DNA from: Pseudomonadota bacterium
GTDB taxonomy: Bacteria; Pseudomonadota; Alphaproteobacteria; SP197
Reading direction: 5' to 3'
NCBI GenBank assembly: GCA_039028155.1
Contig: JBCCIS010000015.1
Span: 1 to 64,000, forward strand
DNA: 64,000 bases
Shown here: piece by piece, positions 53,195 to 59,599 of the stretch
Position numbering within the stretch: the stretch's first letter is position 1
How the letters are laid out: each line of letters begins with the position of its first letter
The notes under the pieces: generated by a model
Seen by the model: the letters and a program-made list of their open reading frames with translations, nothing else
Database searches by the model: none
Told to the model about the DNA's origin: nothing
Translations under genes and position numbers: made by a program

Positions 53195-53692
53195 ATGGCG
53201 AGCGAGGCCCCTCGCGTCGGGATTATCATGGGCAGTCAGTCGGACTGGGAGACCATGCGCCACGCGGCCGAAACGCTGGAGGAGCTGGGTGTGGCCTGTG
53301 AATCCAAGATCATGTCAGCGCACCGGACGCCCGACCGCATGTTCGCCTACGCGGAGGCCGCCAAGGGGCGCGGGCTGCAGGTCATCATCGCCGGCGCCGG
53401 CGGCGCGGCGCATTTGCCGGGCATGACGGCGTCGAAGACACCGCTGCCGGTGCTTGGCGTCCCGGTCGAAAGCAAGGCGCTGAGCGGCATGGACAGTCTG
53501 CTCTCCATCGCCCAGATGCCCGGTGGCATCCCGGTCGGCACGCTCGCGATCGGCCGCGCCGGCGCGATCAACGCGGCGCTTCTGGCCGCCGCCATCGTCG
53601 CCCTGCAGGATGACAAGGTGGCCCAGGCGCTGGATGCCTGGCGGGCCAATCAAACCGCGAACGTGGCCGATGAACCGGTCGATCAGGCTTGA
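53195..53692 (+). CDS. purE: 5-(carboxyamino)imidazole ribonucleotide mutase
   Basis: 165 residues, class I PurE. It rearranges N5-CAIR to CAIR in purine synthesis. Motifs are [70 protein letters not shown] and [29 protein letters not shown]. The 245-base gap upstream (52950-53194) has only a weak CCTCCG/CGGAGG hairpin and no gene. Its stop overlaps the start of purK. Confidence 0.97.
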
Positions 53693-54795
53693 GCGGCGCG
53701 GGCGTGGCTGACGACGGACGGGTTATCGCGCCCGGCGGCACGATCGGTATTGTCGGTGGCGGCCAGCTGGGCCGCATGGCGGCCCTTGCCGCCGCGCCGC
53801 TCGGCTACCGCTGCCATGTCTTTTGTCCCGACGCGGATAGCCCGGCCGAACAGGTCGCCGACAAGGCGACGGTCGCGCCCTATGATGATGCAGAGGCGCT
53901 CGACCGGTTCGCCTCAGAGGTCGACGTCATCACCTATGAGTTCGAGAACCTGCCAACCGAAGCCTTCGCGCGCATGGGCCAGAAGGCACCGGTGCGCCCG
54001 CACTGGCGCTGCCTGGAGACGACCCAGCACCGGGTGACGGAAAAGGACTTCATCAACGCGCAAGGTATCGGCACCGCGCCCTACCAATTGGTGCGCGGGC
54101 CCGACGAGCTTGCCACGGCACTAGAAGCGATCGGCACGCCGGCGGTCCTGAAGACGACCCGGCTGGGCTATGACGGCAAAGGCCAAGTCGGGATCGGGGA
54201 CGGCGACGACCCAGCCGAGGCGTGGACCGCCATGAACGGCGACGAAGGCGTGCTGGAAGGTTTTGTCGGTTTCCGCTGCGAGGTCTCGGCGATCATCGCG
54301 CGCGGGCTGGACGGCAAGACCGCGGCCTTCGACGTGGTCGAGAACCGGCACGCCAACCACATACTGGCAACGACGACGGCGCCCGCCTCCATCTCTGACG
54401 ATCTGGCGCGCGAGGCCCAGGCGATGGCGGCGACGCTTGCTTCGGCCCTTGACCTGGTCGGCCTGCTGGCGGTCGAGATGTTCGTCACGTCCGACGACCG
54501 GCTGCTGGTCAACGAGCTGGCGGCGCGGCCGCACAATTCCGGCCACTGGTCGATCGACGCCTGCCATGCCAGCCAGTTCGAACAGTTCGTGCGCGCCGTC
54601 TGCGGCCTGCCCCTGGGCGATCCGACCCGCCACAGCGACGCCGTCATGACCAATCTGTTGGGCGACGACATCGACCAATGGCAGACGCTGGTCGCCGAAC
54701 CCAATGCGCATCTGCACCTCTACGGCAAGGCCGAAGCCCGACCGGGCCGCAAGATGGGACATGTGACGCGGGTCGGCGCGCTGACAGAGCGCTGA
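53689..54795 (+). CDS. purK: 5-(carboxyamino)imidazole ribonucleotide synthase
   Basis: 368 residues starting at TTG 53689 (TTGA overlap with the purE stop); a GTG at 53704 gives a shorter start closer to the conserved core. It carboxylates AIR with ATP and bicarbonate to N5-CAIR. The ATP-grasp fold has [47 protein letters not shown] and [18 protein letters not shown]. purE and purK form one operon, translationally coupled. Confidence 0.96.
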
Positions 54796-54815: not shown

Positions 54816-55424
54816 TTACGTCACGCGCGTCTGCTCCAACCCGGCGACAAAACGCGTCATCAGTGTCTCGGCCATCGCGTGGACGGTCTGGTCGGAGACG
54901 ATCTGGAGCTTGCCTGAACCGGACAGCGAGCAGATACCGTGCAGGCTGGCCCATAAGATCCTCGCCGCGTCTTTCAGATTGTCGCGGTCGAGATCGGGCA
55001 GACGGCGGGCAAGTGTCGTTTCGATCAGGCCGAGGACCTGGTCAATCTTCTGTAGATACCAATCCGGCAGCGCCGCATCGCCGGATAGCCGGTGTTCGAA
55101 CAAGACGCCCCAGAGATTCCGGTTGCCGTCGAGAAATGCGAGATAGCCCGCGAGCAGTGCCTTGAGATCGCGCGCCGGATCGTCGGTCTTGGCGACCTGC
55201 ATCAGGTCGTCATAGAGCGCATCCAGGGTGCGGCCGTTCATGTGAACGATCAGATCGTCGAGGTCGTCGAAGACGTTGTAGAGCGTCCCCGGCGAATAGC
55301 CGATCGCGTGAGCGACACGACGCGCGGTGAGCGCCGACAGGCCGTCCTCACGGATAATGTCGCGCGCCGCAGCCAGGGCGAGATCATAGAGTTCCTCGCG
55401 GCTGTGATCGGTTCTGCGCGGCAT
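54816..55424 (-). CDS. TetR-family regulator of the ynb-like phospholipid operon
   Basis: 202 residues from the ATG at 55424 (MPRRTDHSREELYDLALAAA); the frame extends to 55490 across the intergenic dyads, which argues against an earlier start. The N-terminal HTH is GLSALTARRVAHAIGYSPGTLYNVFDDLDDLI. The C-terminal domain is TetR_C-like with WYLQKIDQVLGLIETTLARR and ILWASLHGICSL, a ligand-binding type seen near lipid and fatty-acid genes. It is divergent from ynbA, and its predicted operators are the 13-base dyads at 55471 and 55500. The ligand is unknown; a lipid or acyl compound is plausible. Confidence 0.9.
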   Translation of the reverse strand: MPRRTDHSREELYDLALAAARDIIREDGLSALTARRVAHAIGYSPGTLYNVFDDLDDLIVHMNGRTLDALYDDLMQVAKTDDPARDLKALLAGYLAFLDGNRNLWGVLFEHRLSGDAALPDWYLQKIDQVLGLIETTLARRLPDLDRDNLKDAARILWASLHGICSLSGSGKLQIVSDQTVHAMAETLMTRFVAGLEQTRVT

Positions 55425-55470
55425 TTTCCCTGCTTTTTCCGTTAGTTCCGTTGATCTGAGAAAATTATAT

Positions 55471-55515
55471 TGAACGTCGTTCATAATCAACCCATATTTT
55501 GAACGTTGTTCAAAA
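55471..55515. promoter_or_regulatory. Twin TetR operators
   Basis: TGAACGTCGTTCA (55471-55483) and TTTTGAAC-GTT-GTTCAAAA (55497-55515, core TGAACGTTGTTCA at 55500-55512) are two near-identical dyads 29 bases apart, centred between the divergent TetR and ynbA genes. The spacing and symmetry fit two TetR dimers that could repress both promoters. No clear -10/-35 pair can be fixed in the same stretch. Confidence 0.75.
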
Positions 55516-55535
55516 CAGCCTTGTGAGAGAACCTG

Positions 55536-56186
55536 GTGTCGCTCTACAGCCTGAAGCCACGCTTCCAGTCCCTGTTACAGCCGCTGGCCAGCGCGCTGGC
55601 GCGCCGCCGGGTTTCGGCGAACCAGGTCACCCTGACGGCAGCATTGGGGTCGCTTGTTGTCGGCGCCATCGTGTTCGGCCTTGCCAGCACGCGCTGGATC
55701 TTTTTGCTGATCCCTATCTGGCTTTTCGCGCGCATGGCGCTCAACGCGCTGGACGGCATGATCGCCCGCGACTTCAACCAGATGAGCAAACTGGGCGCTT
55801 ATCTGAACGAGCTTTCGGACGTCGTCTCCGACACGGCGATCTACCTGCCTTTCGTCTTGATAGCCCCCTTCAACGGTTATTCCGTCGCTATCGTCATCTA
55901 TCTGTGCGTCCTGTCGGAGTTCGCCGGCGTCCTTGGCCCGACGGTGGGCGCGGAACGACGTTACGACGGCCCTATGGGCAAGAGCGACCGCGCGCTTGTC
56001 TTCGGCGTACTGGGCCTTGCCGTCGCATGCACGACGACCCTGCCGGCCTGGCTTGCCTGGTTGTTCCCGGTCATGGCCGTCGCTCTGCTTATCACGATCG
56101 TCAACCGCGTGCGCGGCGGACTGGCTGCATCACGCGCGACCTTGGCATCCCTGCCCCAATCCCAACGCCCCAGCTCCCAGGAGTGA
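55536..56186 (+). CDS. ynbA: CDP-alcohol phosphatidyltransferase, YnbA-like
   Basis: 216 residues from GTG at 55536, with several TM helices (VTLTAALGSLVVGAIVFGL, WIFLLIPIWLFARMAL). The CDP-alcohol motif is ARMALNALDGMIAR then GAYLNELSDVVSD: the canonical D(x2)DG(x2)AR(x8)G(x3)D(x3)D reads N70-D73-G74-A77-R78-G87-N91-D95, so two of four metal-binding Asp are Asn, with an extra Asp99. E. coli YnbA, recalled from memory, has the same Asn pattern and the GKSDRAL-type block. It would transfer a phosphatidyl group from CDP-diacylglycerol to an alcohol. The alcohol is unknown. Confidence 0.85.
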   Translation: MSLYSLKPRFQSLLQPLASALARRRVSANQVTLTAALGSLVVGAIVFGLASTRWIFLLIPIWLFARMALNALDGMIARDFNQMSKLGAYLNELSDVVSDTAIYLPFVLIAPFNGYSVAIVIYLCVLSEFAGVLGPTVGAERRYDGPMGKSDRALVFGVLGLAVACTTTLPAWLAWLFPVMAVALLITIVNRVRGGLAASRATLASLPQSQRPSSQE

Positions 56187-56193
56187 CCCCACC

Positions 56194-57951
56194 ATGAAAT
56201 CACGAACGGTCACCGAAACGACCTTTAGCGCCCATGACGGCGCCAACCTGTTCTATCGCCATTGGCCCGCCCTGACCGACAATCCGAGAGGCGCCATCGT
56301 CCTGCTGCATCGCGGGCACGAGCACTCCGGGCGCATCGCCCACGTTGTCAGTGAACTGAACCTGCCGGAGTATTCATTCTTTGCCTGGGACGCGCGCGGT
56401 CACGGCCTGTCTGCCGGTGAGCGCGGCTTCAGCCCGAGTGCCGCGACATCGGTGCGGGACGTCAAGAGCTTCGTCGACCACATCGTTTCCGCGCACAGCG
56501 TGCAGGCCTCCAACATCGTCGTGATCGGACAGAGCATCGGCGCGGTCCTGGCCACCGCTTGGGTACACGATTACGCTCCCGACATCCGCGCGCTAGTGCT
56601 GGCCGCGCCAGCCTTCAGCGTCAACTTGCGCATTCCTCTGGCGCGGTCCGCGTTGCGGCTGAAGCAAGCGGTTGGCGGCAACTTCTTCGTCAAAAGCTAT
56701 GTTACGGCGAAAAAGTTGACGCGCGATCCCGCGCGCATCGCCACTTACAACGACGACCCGCTGATCTCGCGTCCGATTGCATCGAACATGCTGCTGGACC
56801 TGCACGACCTGTCGGCACGCCTTGTCGAAGACGCTGCCGCGATCACCACCCCGACACAGGTACTGATCGCGGGCAAAGACCGTGTCGTCGACCCGGCGCC
56901 GCAGCACCGCTTCTATGAGCGGCTTGGCACACCAGTCAAAGAACGTCATGTCTTCCCCGGTCTTCTGCACGATGTGCTGGGTGAAAAGGACAGGCAACAG
57001 GTTATCAAGAGCGTGCGCGCGTTCGTCCTGGCGAATTTTGATAGACCAGCCGCTGCGCCATCGCTCTTGGACGCTGACAAACACGGTGCGACGCGACGCG
57101 AAGTCGACCGGTTGCGCACGCCGTTGCCCGCCTACTCGCCGAAGGCCCTCTACTGGGCCGGCCTGCGGTTGGCACTACGGCTTGGCGGCTGGTTCTCCAA
57201 AGGTCTGCGCATCGGCCGCCGCTACGGCTTCAACTCCGGAACTATGCTGGACTACGTCTATCAGAACAGGCCCAAGGGCTTGACGCCGTTGGGCCGCGCG
57301 CTTGACCGCGCCTATCTGAATGCCATCGGCTGGAAGGGTATCCGTCAGCGCAAACCGCACCTTGAAGAACTGCTTCGATCTGCTATCGCGCGCGTGCGTG
57401 ACGCCGGTCAGCCCCTGCACATTCTTGATCTCGCTGCCGGGCGTGGCCGCTACGTTCTGGATGTGGTCGAAGCCGTCGATCCGCCGCCGCAGTCCGTCCT
57501 GTTGCGCGATATCAGCGATGTGAACGTTGAAGGCGGAACCGAATTGATCGCTTATCGAGGTTTGGACGACACCGTCACCTTTGCCAAAGGTGACGCGTTC
57601 GATACGGACGACATCGCCGCCATCGATCCCAGGCCGACGGTCGCCATCGTGTCCGGCCTCTATGAATTGGTCCCGGACAACGCGGCTGTTCGCGACTCAC
57701 TGGAAGGACTTGGGCAGGCCGTGCGCGACGGCGGCTATCTAATCTATACAGGTCAACCCTGGCACCCGCAGCTGGAGATGATCGCCCGTACGCTGACCGA
57801 CCATAAAGATGGCGAACCATGGATCATGCGGCGGCGTAGTCAGGTCGAACTGGACCAGCTTGTCGCCGCCGCCGGTTTCAAGAAGATCGACCAGCGGATC
57901 GATGAGTGGGGAATTTTCACGGTTTCCCTGGCGCAGAAGATAGCGTCATGA
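56194..57951 (+). CDS. ynbC: Alpha/beta-hydrolase fused to SAM-dependent methyltransferase, YnbC-like
   Basis: 585 residues from ATG 56194, matching the 585-residue E. coli YnbC as recalled. N-terminal hydrolase (about 20-285): LHRGHEHSGR, nucleophile IGQSIGAV with Ser114, acid Asp229/233 in AGKDRVVD, His259 in GLLHDVLGE. A linker with the hydrophobic ALYWAGLRLALRLGGWF (318-334) precedes a class I methyltransferase (about 385-585) with motif I LHILDLAAGRGRY (408-420) and VSGLYELVPDN. A hydrolase plus methyltransferase suggests a lipid head-group is trimmed or methylated. It follows ynbA by 7 bases and overlaps the acyltransferase start by 4. Confidence 0.88.
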   Translation: MKSRTVTETTFSAHDGANLFYRHWPALTDNPRGAIVLLHRGHEHSGRIAHVVSELNLPEYSFFAWDARGHGLSAGERGFSPSAATSVRDVKSFVDHIVSAHSVQASNIVVIGQSIGAVLATAWVHDYAPDIRALVLAAPAFSVNLRIPLARSALRLKQAVGGNFFVKSYVTAKKLTRDPARIATYNDDPLISRPIASNMLLDLHDLSARLVEDAAAITTPTQVLIAGKDRVVDPAPQHRFYERLGTPVKERHVFPGLLHDVLGEKDRQQVIKSVRAFVLANFDRPAAAPSLLDADKHGATRREVDRLRTPLPAYSPKALYWAGLRLALRLGGWFSKGLRIGRRYGFNSGTMLDYVYQNRPKGLTPLGRALDRAYLNAIGWKGIRQRKPHLEELLRSAIARVRDAGQPLHILDLAAGRGRYVLDVVEAVDPPPQSVLLRDISDVNVEGGTELIAYRGLDDTVTFAKGDAFDTDDIAAIDPRPTVAIVSGLYELVPDNAAVRDSLEGLGQAVRDGGYLIYTGQPWHPQLEMIARTLTDHKDGEPWIMRRRSQVELDQLVAAAGFKKIDQRIDEWGIFTVSLAQKIAS

Positions 57952-58658
57952 CCGCCATTATCGACCCCGCCTACGCCGACCAGACGTGGCATGGGCCGTC
58001 GGCTCTCAGGCGATGGCTAGCGGCTTTGTGCACGATCGCGTTGCTTCTGTTCGTACGGGTGATGACGGCGGCGACAGCCCATTGGGTGGAGTCCAAACCA
58101 CAACCCCGAAAGCGCATCTATTTCGCCAATCACACCAGCAATGGCGACTTCGTTCTCATCTGGTCGGCACTTCCCCGTTCCCTGCGCGAGATGACGAGGC
58201 CCGTGGCCGGCGCCGACTACTGGCTGAAGAACGCGCTTCAGCGTTTCGTAGCGAGGGATGTCTTTGGCTCGGTCTTGATCGACCGATGTCGTTCGGCTGC
58301 CGCCGACGAGGCGCTTCGGCGCATGGCCGACGCGCTAGACGAAGGCGCGTCGCTTATCCTGTTTCCCGAGGGCACACGCAACATGACTGACATGCCCTTG
58401 CTGCCGTTTAAAAGCGGCCTCTACCACCTGGCCAAGCAGTGTCCCGATGTCGAGGTCGTGCCGGTCTGGTTGTCAAACACCGGCCGCGTTTTGCCTAAAG
58501 GCGAGATCATTCCTGTACCGCTGCGCTGCGGCGTAACCTTTGGTGCGCCGCTGAGATTGAGCCCGGGCGAAGCGAAAACTGCGTTTCTTGATCGCGCTTC
58601 GAGCGCGCTTTTGGCTCTTGCGCCTCCAACACATCTCAAGCCGGCGGATGTGTCATGA
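57948..58658 (+). CDS. 1-acyl-sn-glycerol-3-phosphate acyltransferase-like (PlsC family)
   Basis: 236 residues from ATG 57948 (overlapping the ynbC stop). An N-terminal TM segment (LAALCTIALLLFVRVMTA) precedes the acyltransferase motifs: HX4D as FANHTSNGD, then LFPEGTRN and LPFKSGLYHLA. PlsC enzymes acylate lysophosphatidate to phosphatidate, the substrate of the following CdsA-like enzyme. It has an ATG stop-start overlap (58655-58658) with that gene. E. coli ynb genes do not carry this acyltransferase as far as I recall. Confidence 0.92.
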   Translation: MTAIIDPAYADQTWHGPSALRRWLAALCTIALLLFVRVMTAATAHWVESKPQPRKRIYFANHTSNGDFVLIWSALPRSLREMTRPVAGADYWLKNALQRFVARDVFGSVLIDRCRSAAADEALRRMADALDEGASLILFPEGTRNMTDMPLLPFKSGLYHLAKQCPDVEVVPVWLSNTGRVLPKGEIIPVPLRCGVTFGAPLRLSPGEAKTAFLDRASSALLALAPPTHLKPADVS

Positions 58659-59599
58659 CATCCACGCTTCACCTGCTGTCGCTTCTGGGCGGGCTCGTCG
58701 CGGTACTGACGCTGGCGACCGTCGCAGGCCGCACGCTGGCCAATGCGGGTCGAGCCACCATTCCAGCAGACGTCGTGGTCGACGTGAATCGGCGGATCAA
58801 TTCATGGTGGGTCATGGTGGGTTTATTGGGCCTGGGTTTTCTGCTCGGCGAAACCGGCGTCACGCTCCTTTTCGCCCTTTTGTCTTTTGCCGCTTTGCGC
58901 GAGTTCTTGTCGCTGACTGACACTAGACGCAGAGATCACTGGGTCCTGCTCAGCGCGTTTTTTGTCGTGCTCCCGGTCCAGTACTTTTTGGTTTGGCAGG
59001 GCTGGCTGGTCTTTGCCGCTCTTTTCATCCCCATCGCCGTGTTCCTCGCGCTCCCCATCGTCAGCGCCTTGCAGGGCGATACCACAGGCTACCTCGGGCG
59101 CATCGCAACGACGCAGTGGGCAGTGACGCTGTGCATCTATTGCCTGTCCTACGTCCCCATGCTGATGAACCTCGACCTGCAGGGTTACGATCAGCGTCAC
59201 CTGCTGCTCGTTGCTTTCTTTCTTGTCGTCGTTCAGGCCAGTGATGTCTTTCAATTCGTCTGGGGCAAGCTCGTTGGCCGCCACAAGATCGCACCCGCGC
59301 TGTCACCGTCAAAGACGGTCGAGGGTTTGGCGGGCGGCGTTCTCAGCGCAGCTGCACTGGGCGCAGCTCTTTGGTGGGTCACGCCGTTCGACCCGGTAGA
59401 GGCGGCGGCAATGGCACTCGTCATTGCCATCATGGGTTTCCTTGGCGGGCTCGTGATGTCGGCGATCAAACGGGACCGCGGGGTCAAAGACTGGGGCAAC
59501 ATGATCGCCGGCCACGGCGGTGTTCTCGACCGGCTTGATTCCGTCGTCTTTTCCGCGCCCGCCTTTTTCCTGATCCTGCAGTACGGCTGGACACTCTGA
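58655..59599 (+). CDS. ynbB: Phosphatidate cytidylyltransferase, CdsA/YnbB-like
   Basis: 314 residues with about eight TM helices (e.g. SWWVMVGLLGLGFLLGETGVTLLFALLSFAAL). The CdsA signature is SAIKRDRGVKDWGNMIAGHGG then VLDRLDS, near residues 268-290. It makes CDP-diacylglycerol, the donor for YnbA, so this operon would form its own route from lysophosphatidate to a phosphatidyl-alcohol. A separate housekeeping cdsA is expected elsewhere. It is the last gene of the operon; a 94-base gap follows. Confidence 0.92.
   Translation: MTSTLHLLSLLGGLVAVLTLATVAGRTLANAGRATIPADVVVDVNRRINSWWVMVGLLGLGFLLGETGVTLLFALLSFAALREFLSLTDTRRRDHWVLLSAFFVVLPVQYFLVWQGWLVFAALFIPIAVFLALPIVSALQGDTTGYLGRIATTQWAVTLCIYCLSYVPMLMNLDLQGYDQRHLLLVAFFLVVVQASDVFQFVWGKLVGRHKIAPALSPSKTVEGLAGGVLSAAALGAALWWVTPFDPVEAAAMALVIAIMGFLGGLVMSAIKRDRGVKDWGNMIAGHGGVLDRLDSVVFSAPAFFLILQYGWTL

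What the first reader, a model, noticed from the sequence alone, without database searches (positions are those of the whole stretch)
54816..59599. TetR-controlled ynb-type phospholipid operon with its own acyltransferase
TetR faces YnbA-like CDP-alcohol phosphotransferase, YnbC-like hydrolase-methyltransferase fusion, PlsC-like acyltransferase and CdsA-like synthase, all with tight or overlapping starts. Read together they form a self-contained branch: lysophosphatidate to phosphatidate to CDP-diacylglycerol to a phosphatidyl-alcohol, then a hydrolase/methyltransferase step. The E. coli ynb set recalled from memory has ynbA, ynbB and ynbC but not the PlsC step. The final lipid is not known to me, so this may be an undescribed membrane lipid or lipid-remodelling system.
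Basis: partly seen in the sequence, partly recalled or inferred. Interest (0 to 1): 0.82.

Follow-up and report, generated by a model that had tools for sequence, protein, structure and literature searches.

The report
TetR-controlled Arc1/Ynb-type phospholipid operon
This is a compact, TetR-switched version of a widespread bacterial lipid-making gene set, known in Pseudomonas as a defence against membrane-destroying toxins, and its key enzyme carries an altered active site whose product is not known.

Summary
The five genes are real, tightly packed and in the stated order. The comparison with E. coli ynb is right as homology, but E. coli is the odd case: in 100 of 110 collected loci the set includes both the PlsC-type acyltransferase and the CdsA-type synthase, so PlsC is the usual state. 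The same set is arc1A-F (PA2541-PA2536) of Pseudomonas aeruginosa, a published antagonism-resistance cluster needed against lipase toxins. It is therefore not an undescribed system, although its lipid is still unknown.

New here: (1) the window lineage lacks the YnbD/Arc1C phosphatase and small Arc1D gene, and no YnbD is found elsewhere in its genome; (2) a divergent TetR and two TGAACNNNGTTCA palindromes 29 bp apart control it, a pair that also precedes a second biosynthetic operon; (3) the CDP-alcohol phosphotransferase-like protein has Asn instead of Asp at the first and third metal-ligand positions in 108 of 108 sequences, although papers call these residues absolutely conserved; (4) this protein with PlsC and CdsA is the core, while hydrolase-methyltransferase and YnbD are a co-varying accessory pair. 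Best reading: an inducible membrane-repair branch making a phosphatidylglycerol-like or related lipid.

The parts
54816..55424 (-). TetR-family repressor (TetR_N + TetR_C_33); probable start ATG at 55424 (ORF opens at TTG 55490)
   Evidence: Pfam; ORF; start choice read from the sequence
55470..55484 (.). candidate operator 1, TTGAACGTCGTTCAT
55499..55513 (.). candidate operator 2, TTGAACGTTGTTCAA, 29 bp from operator 1
55536..56186 (+). YnbA/Arc1A-type CDP-alcohol phosphotransferase-like membrane protein with the signature N70xxD73G..AR..GxxxN91ExxD95
   Evidence: Pfam; alignment; motif census; model pLDDT 91.2; fold search
56194..57951 (+). YnbC/Arc1B-type monoacylglycerol-lipase-like hydrolase (residues about 5-270) fused to a class I SAM methyltransferase (Methyltransf_20, 274-582)
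   Evidence: Pfam; PDB sequence hits; MT domain model and fold search
57948..58658 (+). PlsC/Arc1E-type acyltransferase; HxxxxD and FPEGTR motifs present
   Evidence: Pfam; NCBIfam TIGR00530 53.6 bits, below its 102.95 cut-off; 52% to the Pseudomonas Arc1E homologue
58655..59599 (+). YnbB/Arc1F-type CDP-diacylglycerol synthase (CdsA paralogue)
   Evidence: Pfam; PDB hit to a phosphatidate cytidylyltransferase (4q2g); a second CTP_transf_1 gene at G000:C42

Best explanation
The operon is a TetR-repressed, four-enzyme version of the Arc1/Ynb lipid pathway. When a signal (ligand unknown) releases TetR from the two palindromes, the operon is transcribed as one unit. The acyltransferase remakes phosphatidate from a lysolipid, the CdsA paralogue turns it into CDP-diacylglycerol, and the YnbA/Arc1A-like protein transfers the phosphatidyl group to an acceptor that probably carries a phosphate, most simply glycerol-3-phosphate, giving a phosphatidylglycerol-phosphate-like lipid. 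The lipase-like half of the fusion protein removes acyl chains from a damaged or by-product lipid, and its methyltransferase half caps a product of that step. The physiological role is inducible repair or remodelling of a membrane damaged by lipases, as shown for arc1A in P. aeruginosa. Shown here: gene set, homology to arc1 and ynb, paired sites, core/accessory structure, Asn/Asn active site. Shown in papers: arc1A mutants are sensitive to T6SS attack and to lipase effectors; E. coli YnbB makes CDP-DAG in vitro. Inferred: substrates, order of steps, acceptor, TetR acting as a repressor at these sites, and the role in this organism.
For: Orthology: genome G460, of the same genus as three of the Pseudomonas-family loci, carries two published PAO1 PA2541 deletion-primer sequences exactly at the start and end of its CDPAP gene, followed by HydMT, YnbD-like, small gene, PlsC and CdsA in arc1A-F order; identities to the window proteins are 58/57/52/54%. 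Role: arc1 is one of three clusters protecting P. aeruginosa against T6SS attack, and five of its six genes are phospholipid-related; arc1A is needed against lipase effectors of V. cholerae and A. baylyi. Core: of 42 genomes with a CDPAP hit among 398, 36 have PlsC and CdsA beside it. Specialised copies: the genome has a separate cdsA-type gene and other CDP-APs. Acceptor: both phosphate-binding Arg of PIP synthase (R155, R195 of the M. tuberculosis enzyme) align with R152 and R191, which are invariant in 17 of 17; best folds are PIP synthases, TM by query length up to 0.72; inositol-phosphate synthase is absent in 26 of 29 cluster genomes, this one included. Control: perfect TGAACNNNGTTCA sites lie upstream of CDPAP in 3 of 107 loci (0.01 expected), exactly the three with an adjacent TetR gene.
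Against: No experiment in this organism. The defence role was shown in a gammaproteobacterium under Gac/Rsm, not TetR. Two canonical metal-ligand Asp are Asn in the key enzyme, so a classical CDP-AP reaction is not assured. The dedicated phosphatase expected for a phosphatidyl-X-phosphate product is missing from this genome. Arc3A (PF10101), another defence factor of P. aeruginosa, is absent in 14 of 29 cluster genomes, this one among them. The PlsC-like protein scores below the LPA acyltransferase cut-off, so its substrate may be another lysolipid. E. coli YnbB cannot replace CdsA for bulk phospholipid synthesis.
Confidence: 0.55

Rival explanations
1. A branch that makes the MPIase-type glycolipid precursor: the CdsA paralogue makes CDP-DAG and then GlcNAc-PP-DAG, as reported for E. 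coli YnbB, and the operon is a back-up for membrane protein integration.
For: YnbB overproduction raises MPIase and YnbB cannot replace CdsA for phospholipids (PMC6362211; PMC7018664). The window CdsA is a homologue, 37% identical to YnbB.
Against: ynbB deletion did not change the MPIase level significantly. It gives no role for the CDPAP, PlsC, hydrolase or methyltransferase that travel with it. arc1A has a lipase-resistance phenotype.
Confidence: 0.1
2. An undescribed lipid made by non-classical chemistry: the CDPAP-like protein with Asn at D1 and D3 and an adjacent invariant Glu uses another metal arrangement or acceptor, and the methyltransferase modifies the head group.
For: Asn/Asn in 108 of 108 sequences, window included, and in 4 of the 5 more distant relatives, while two complete canonical CDP-APs of the same genome keep Asp; Glu92 invariant in 17 of 17; a conserved methyltransferase of unknown substrate.
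Against: Fold, DG..AR, the D4 base and both phosphate-binding Arg are kept. 12 of the 15 CDPAP genomes without PF12147 keep CDPAP, PlsC and CdsA together, so the core does not need this methyltransferase.
Confidence: 0.25
3. Lysolipid and fatty-acid detoxification first: the fusion enzyme hydrolyses lysophospholipid or monoacylglycerol and methylates the released product, while PlsC re-acylates lysolipids; the CDP steps only recycle phosphatidate.
For: The hydrolase half resembles monoacylglycerol lipases (6eic) and weakly lysophospholipase L2. Protection in P. aeruginosa is against lipases.
Against: The core without HydMT is common (8 of 10 strong CDPAP genomes without PF12147 keep PlsC and CdsA), so the CDP branch, not the hydrolase, is the constant part. 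Methyltransferase substrate unknown.
Confidence: 0.1

Closest known systems
arc1A-F (PA2541-PA2536), Pseudomonas aeruginosa antagonism resistance cluster 1
   Same: CDPAP, hydrolase-methyltransferase, PlsC and CdsA in the same order; 52-58% identity to the Pseudomonas homologues
   Different: Window lacks Arc1C (PAP2-DSP phosphatase) and Arc1D (small gene); TetR with paired sites instead of Gac/Rsm; no Arc3A in the genome
E. coli ynbABCD
   Same: YnbA, YnbB and YnbC homologues (47, 37, 53% identity); same Asn/Asn motif in YnbA
   Different: Order ynbA-ynbB-ynbC-ynbD; E. coli has YnbD but no PlsC gene in the cluster; no TetR
Operon of Alphaproteobacteria MAG MO_074.B3 (L101)
   Same: TetR, two palindromes 29 bp apart, CDPAP, HydMT, PlsC, CdsA, no YnbD; HydMT 66% identical
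   Different: Its genome has an inositol-phosphate synthase and PF10101
Bacterial phosphatidylinositol-phosphate synthases (RsPIPS, MtPgsA1)
   Same: Nearest solved fold (TM 0.65-0.72 by query length) and conserved phosphate-binding Arg pair
   Different: D1 and D3 of the signature are Asn; about 20% identity; no inositol-phosphate synthase in the genome

Membership tests
Arc1 cluster | arc1A, B, E, F homologues in arc1 order | tested here: met
   58/57/52/54% identity, same order
Arc1 cluster | arc1C (PAP2-DSP) and arc1D present | tested here: not met
   Neither is in the operon; no YnbD-like hit anywhere in G000. arc1D was sought only in the locus. So: Arc1-like, not a full arc1A-F cluster
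Arc1 cluster | Protection against lipase or T6SS attack | not testable with these tools
   Shown only for P. aeruginosa arc1
E. coli ynb operon | ynbA-ynbB-ynbC-ynbD gene set | tested here: not met
   A, B and C homologues present, D absent, PlsC added, order differs
CDP-alcohol phosphotransferases (canonical) | D1xxD2G1xxAR...G2xxxD3xxxD4, eight residues described as absolutely conserved (PMC4634129) | tested here: not met
   D1 and D3 are Asn: N70, D73, N91, D95
CDP-alcohol phosphotransferase fold superfamily | PF01066 above cut-off and matching fold | tested here: met
   32.9 bits vs 22; Foldseek E 3e-05 to RsPIPS
CdsA family | PF01148 above cut-off and C-terminal SxxKRxxxxKDxxxxxxxHGGxxDRxD signature (signature recalled) | tested here: met
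   216 bits; SAIKRDRGVKDWGNMIAGHGGVLDRLD read
PlsC LPA acyltransferases | HxxxxD and EGTR motifs (recalled); equivalent-level family score | tested here: inconclusive
   Motifs present; TIGR00530 53.6 bits, cut-off 102.95
TetR local repressor | Divergent gene with palindromic sites between | tested here: met
   binding itself not tested

The most novel reading that the evidence does not exclude
YnbA/Arc1A proteins are a separate class of CDP-alcohol phosphotransferase in which both metal-ligand aspartates D1 and D3 have become asparagine (with an invariant Glu beside the second), usually run by their own PlsC and CdsA, and make a still undescribed protective membrane lipid in many Proteobacteria. 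In this lineage it is induced through a TetR whose site also stands before a second lipid- or acyl-metabolite operon.
Probability: 0.25. Interest if true: 0.75.

Novelty: new variant of a known kind. Interest (0 to 1): 0.5.

Why it matters
Arc1 is a recognised defence against lipase toxins with no known biochemistry in the papers seen, and E. coli ynb is an operon studied there only through YnbB. Showing that they are one gene family, with a three-gene core and an altered active site, turns both into one testable enzymology question. The TetR-controlled version gives a simple handle: the TetR ligand may reveal the damage signal. If the Asn/Asn enzyme makes a new lipid, a fairly common membrane lipid has been missed.

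Tried and rejected
Inositol-phosphate as a general acceptor: PF01658 found in only 3 of 29 cluster genomes, not in G000. It is not excluded for those three.

PlsC as the novelty of this operon: rejected, 100 of 110 loci have PlsC and CdsA.

A YnbD phosphatase elsewhere in the genome: none in G000 or in G473, the genome of L101; G204 has one about 42 kb from its cluster.

Arc3A beside Arc1 as support for a defence role: absent in G000, present in 15 of 29, so it does not help.

Function from the methyltransferase fold: the nearest chain is 3ocj, titled a possible exported protein (Z 22.5, 254 aligned, rmsd 3.5); the next rows lie at Z 16.6-18.1. A PDB profile search gave only weak hits (best E 0.015). 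No substrate could be assigned.

Tree: window and L101 form one group (SH-aLRT 100, quick method) in an open group with alphaproteobacterial loci that keep YnbD, which suggests loss; the window row has a long branch and its place is unsure. 11 loci were dropped by name before the tree, and only rows over 500 bits were taken; 97 rows used.

Literature: ynbA with ynbB and ynbC gave one paper; any of six ynb terms gave 222, of which 40 were listed, mostly YNB medium or unrelated; a cluster-description search gave none; two searches for Arc1 follow-ups gave three and two papers. No paper seen equates arc1 with ynb; the arc paper has no 'ynb'. The library holds open-licence papers only.

Biases: loci were found through the hydrolase-methyltransferase, so its presence there is by construction; one search returned the best 80 of 507 and is rich in Pseudomonas; some loci are near-copies (L040 and L145 are identical in the tree). 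The HydMT-independent count is. L226 (G110) is probably decayed (stop inside); L060 and L061 are contig-end fragments of one genome.

Full report
OBSERVATION. The window lies in a 5.3-Mb, 118-contig genome (G000, 97.4% complete, 4.2% contaminated). The class is inferred to be Alphaproteobacteria, because its same-class loci group with named Rhizobiaceae. Pfam confirms all five genes above cut-off. Two ATGA overlaps and a 7-bp gap make the four enzymes one translational unit. The neighbours are purE/purK-like genes (53195-54795, read, not family-tested) upstream and a Sel1-repeat gene downstream.

WHAT IT IS. A scan of 398 genomes of the phylum found the Methyltransf_20 family in 27; among 61 genomes chosen as relatives only G000 and G403 had it, so the operon is patchy near home. 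Larger stretches of these genomes, 80 named loci, the window and E. coli K-12 were read together, 110 loci in all. 82 of 110 show exactly CDPAP, HydMT, YnbD-like, small gene, PlsC, CdsA. 100 of 110 have both PlsC and CdsA, and 104 of 110 have the YnbD-like gene. The window and L101 share TetR-CDPAP-HydMT-PlsC-CdsA without YnbD. E. coli has CDPAP-CdsA-HydMT-YnbD and no PlsC.

THE PSEUDOMONAS NAME. A paper search for the P. aeruginosa locus tags, recalled from memory, led to PMC8926400 (outline, passages and sections 5 and 6 read). It names PA2541-36 arc1A-F, states that five of six genes are related to phospholipid synthesis or metabolism, and shows that deletion lowers survival under T6SS attack. 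I tied the names to sequence by two published primers that fall exactly on the ends of the CDPAP gene in one of 25 genomes of that genus; a third primer was not found in the stretch. Its six genes match arc1A-F in number and order. PMC12663445 (passages) shows that arc1A is needed against the lipase effectors TseL and Tle1. PMC6362211 and PMC7018664 (passages) report that E. coli YnbB is a CdsA paralogue that makes CDP-DAG in vitro, raises MPIase when overproduced and cannot replace CdsA. The arc paper does not mention ynb, so the two lines of work seem not to have been joined in the papers I could see.

CORE AND ACCESSORIES. Searching with the CDPAP alignment instead of the methyltransferase removes the selection bias. 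42 of 398 genomes hit: 27 with PF12147, 10 strong hits without it, 5 weak hits. PlsC and CdsA both lie within 8 kb of CDPAP in 24 of 27, 8 of 10 and 4 of 5, i.e. 36 of 42. YnbD lies near in 24 of 27, 0 of 10 and 0 of 5. So PlsC-CdsA-CDPAP is the constant part, and HydMT and YnbD are a co-varying accessory pair. The window is one of three HydMT-positive genomes without YnbD beside it (window, L058, L059). Whole-genome searches find no YnbD in G000, G473 or G296, while G204 has one elsewhere.

THE ODD ACTIVE SITE. PMC4634129 and PMC6506517 (passages) describe the CDP-AP signature: eight absolutely conserved residues, four Asp serving a two-metal site, D4 the likely base. The window protein aligns with MtPgsA1 D68, D71, D89 and D93 as N70, D73, N91 and D95. 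All 108 sequences tested, including E. coli YnbA and the Pseudomonas Arc1A, have the same N, D, A, R, N, D. Two complete canonical CDP-APs of the window genome have D, D, D, D; for a third hit, at a contig end, no canonical motif could be read. Four of the five weak hits carry NLLDG...NEFPD, so the Asn pair reaches beyond this subfamily; the fifth (L233) did not fit the pattern. L227, a divergent hit with no PlsC or CdsA beside it, has A at D1 and N at D3. The model (pLDDT 91.2) matches PIP synthases best, and the two phosphate-binding Arg are kept. This argues for a phosphorylated acceptor. Since inositol-phosphate synthase is missing in 26 of 29 cluster genomes, glycerol-3-phosphate is my simplest guess; that is inference.

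CONTROL. TGAACGTCGTTCA and TGAACGTTGTTCA lie 29 bp apart between tetR and CDPAP. In 107 loci with CDPAP, perfect TGAACNNNGTTCA sites occur within 250 bp upstream in three, against 0.01 expected from base shuffles, and these are exactly the three loci with an adjacent TetR gene: window (2 sites), L101 (2, also 29 bp apart) and L138 (3). A whole-genome search for the pair in five genomes found it at these operons, at G000:C26 and at a similar site in the same-genus genome G398, none in G403, and none with the reversed-pattern control. At C26 it precedes a different operon with its own TetR_C_33 paralogue. So this TetR group and its site are well supported; which TetR binds which site is not known.

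VERDICT. The system is Arc1/Ynb-type, widespread and partly characterised. What deserves follow-up is the Asn/Asn CDP-AP class with its own PlsC and CdsA, the unknown lipid, and the TetR-switched version without the phosphatase.

Noticed in passing
G000:C26:45953-52015 (L087:7954-14015): The same 29-bp-spaced operator pair precedes an operon with a PEMT/ICMT-like methyltransferase, KASIII-like synthase, AurF-like di-iron oxygenase, a carrier-protein-like ORF, class II synthetase-like protein, NAD_binding_4 reductase and a TetR_C_33 paralogue; looks like a specialised acyl-metabolite cluster.
   Followed up: partly
G398:C215:1178-1219 (L236): A similar operator pair in the same-genus genome that has no PF12147 match, so the C26-type operon may exist there without the Arc1-type operon.
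   Followed up: no
L229:3008-5195, L230:1591-3732, L232:1500-3660: A second, distant CDP-AP subfamily (NLLDGMVA.EGG...NEFPD, the Arg of DGxxAR lost) also sits beside its own PlsC and CdsA.
   Followed up: partly
L052, L053, L129, L135: Rhizobium-type loci have CDPAP divergent from HydMT-YnbD-small gene and no PlsC or CdsA nearby.
   Followed up: no
L034:9533-9988: Arc1D-type small gene (151 aa) has no Pfam family at E 0.001; hydrophobic stretches by eye.
   Followed up: no
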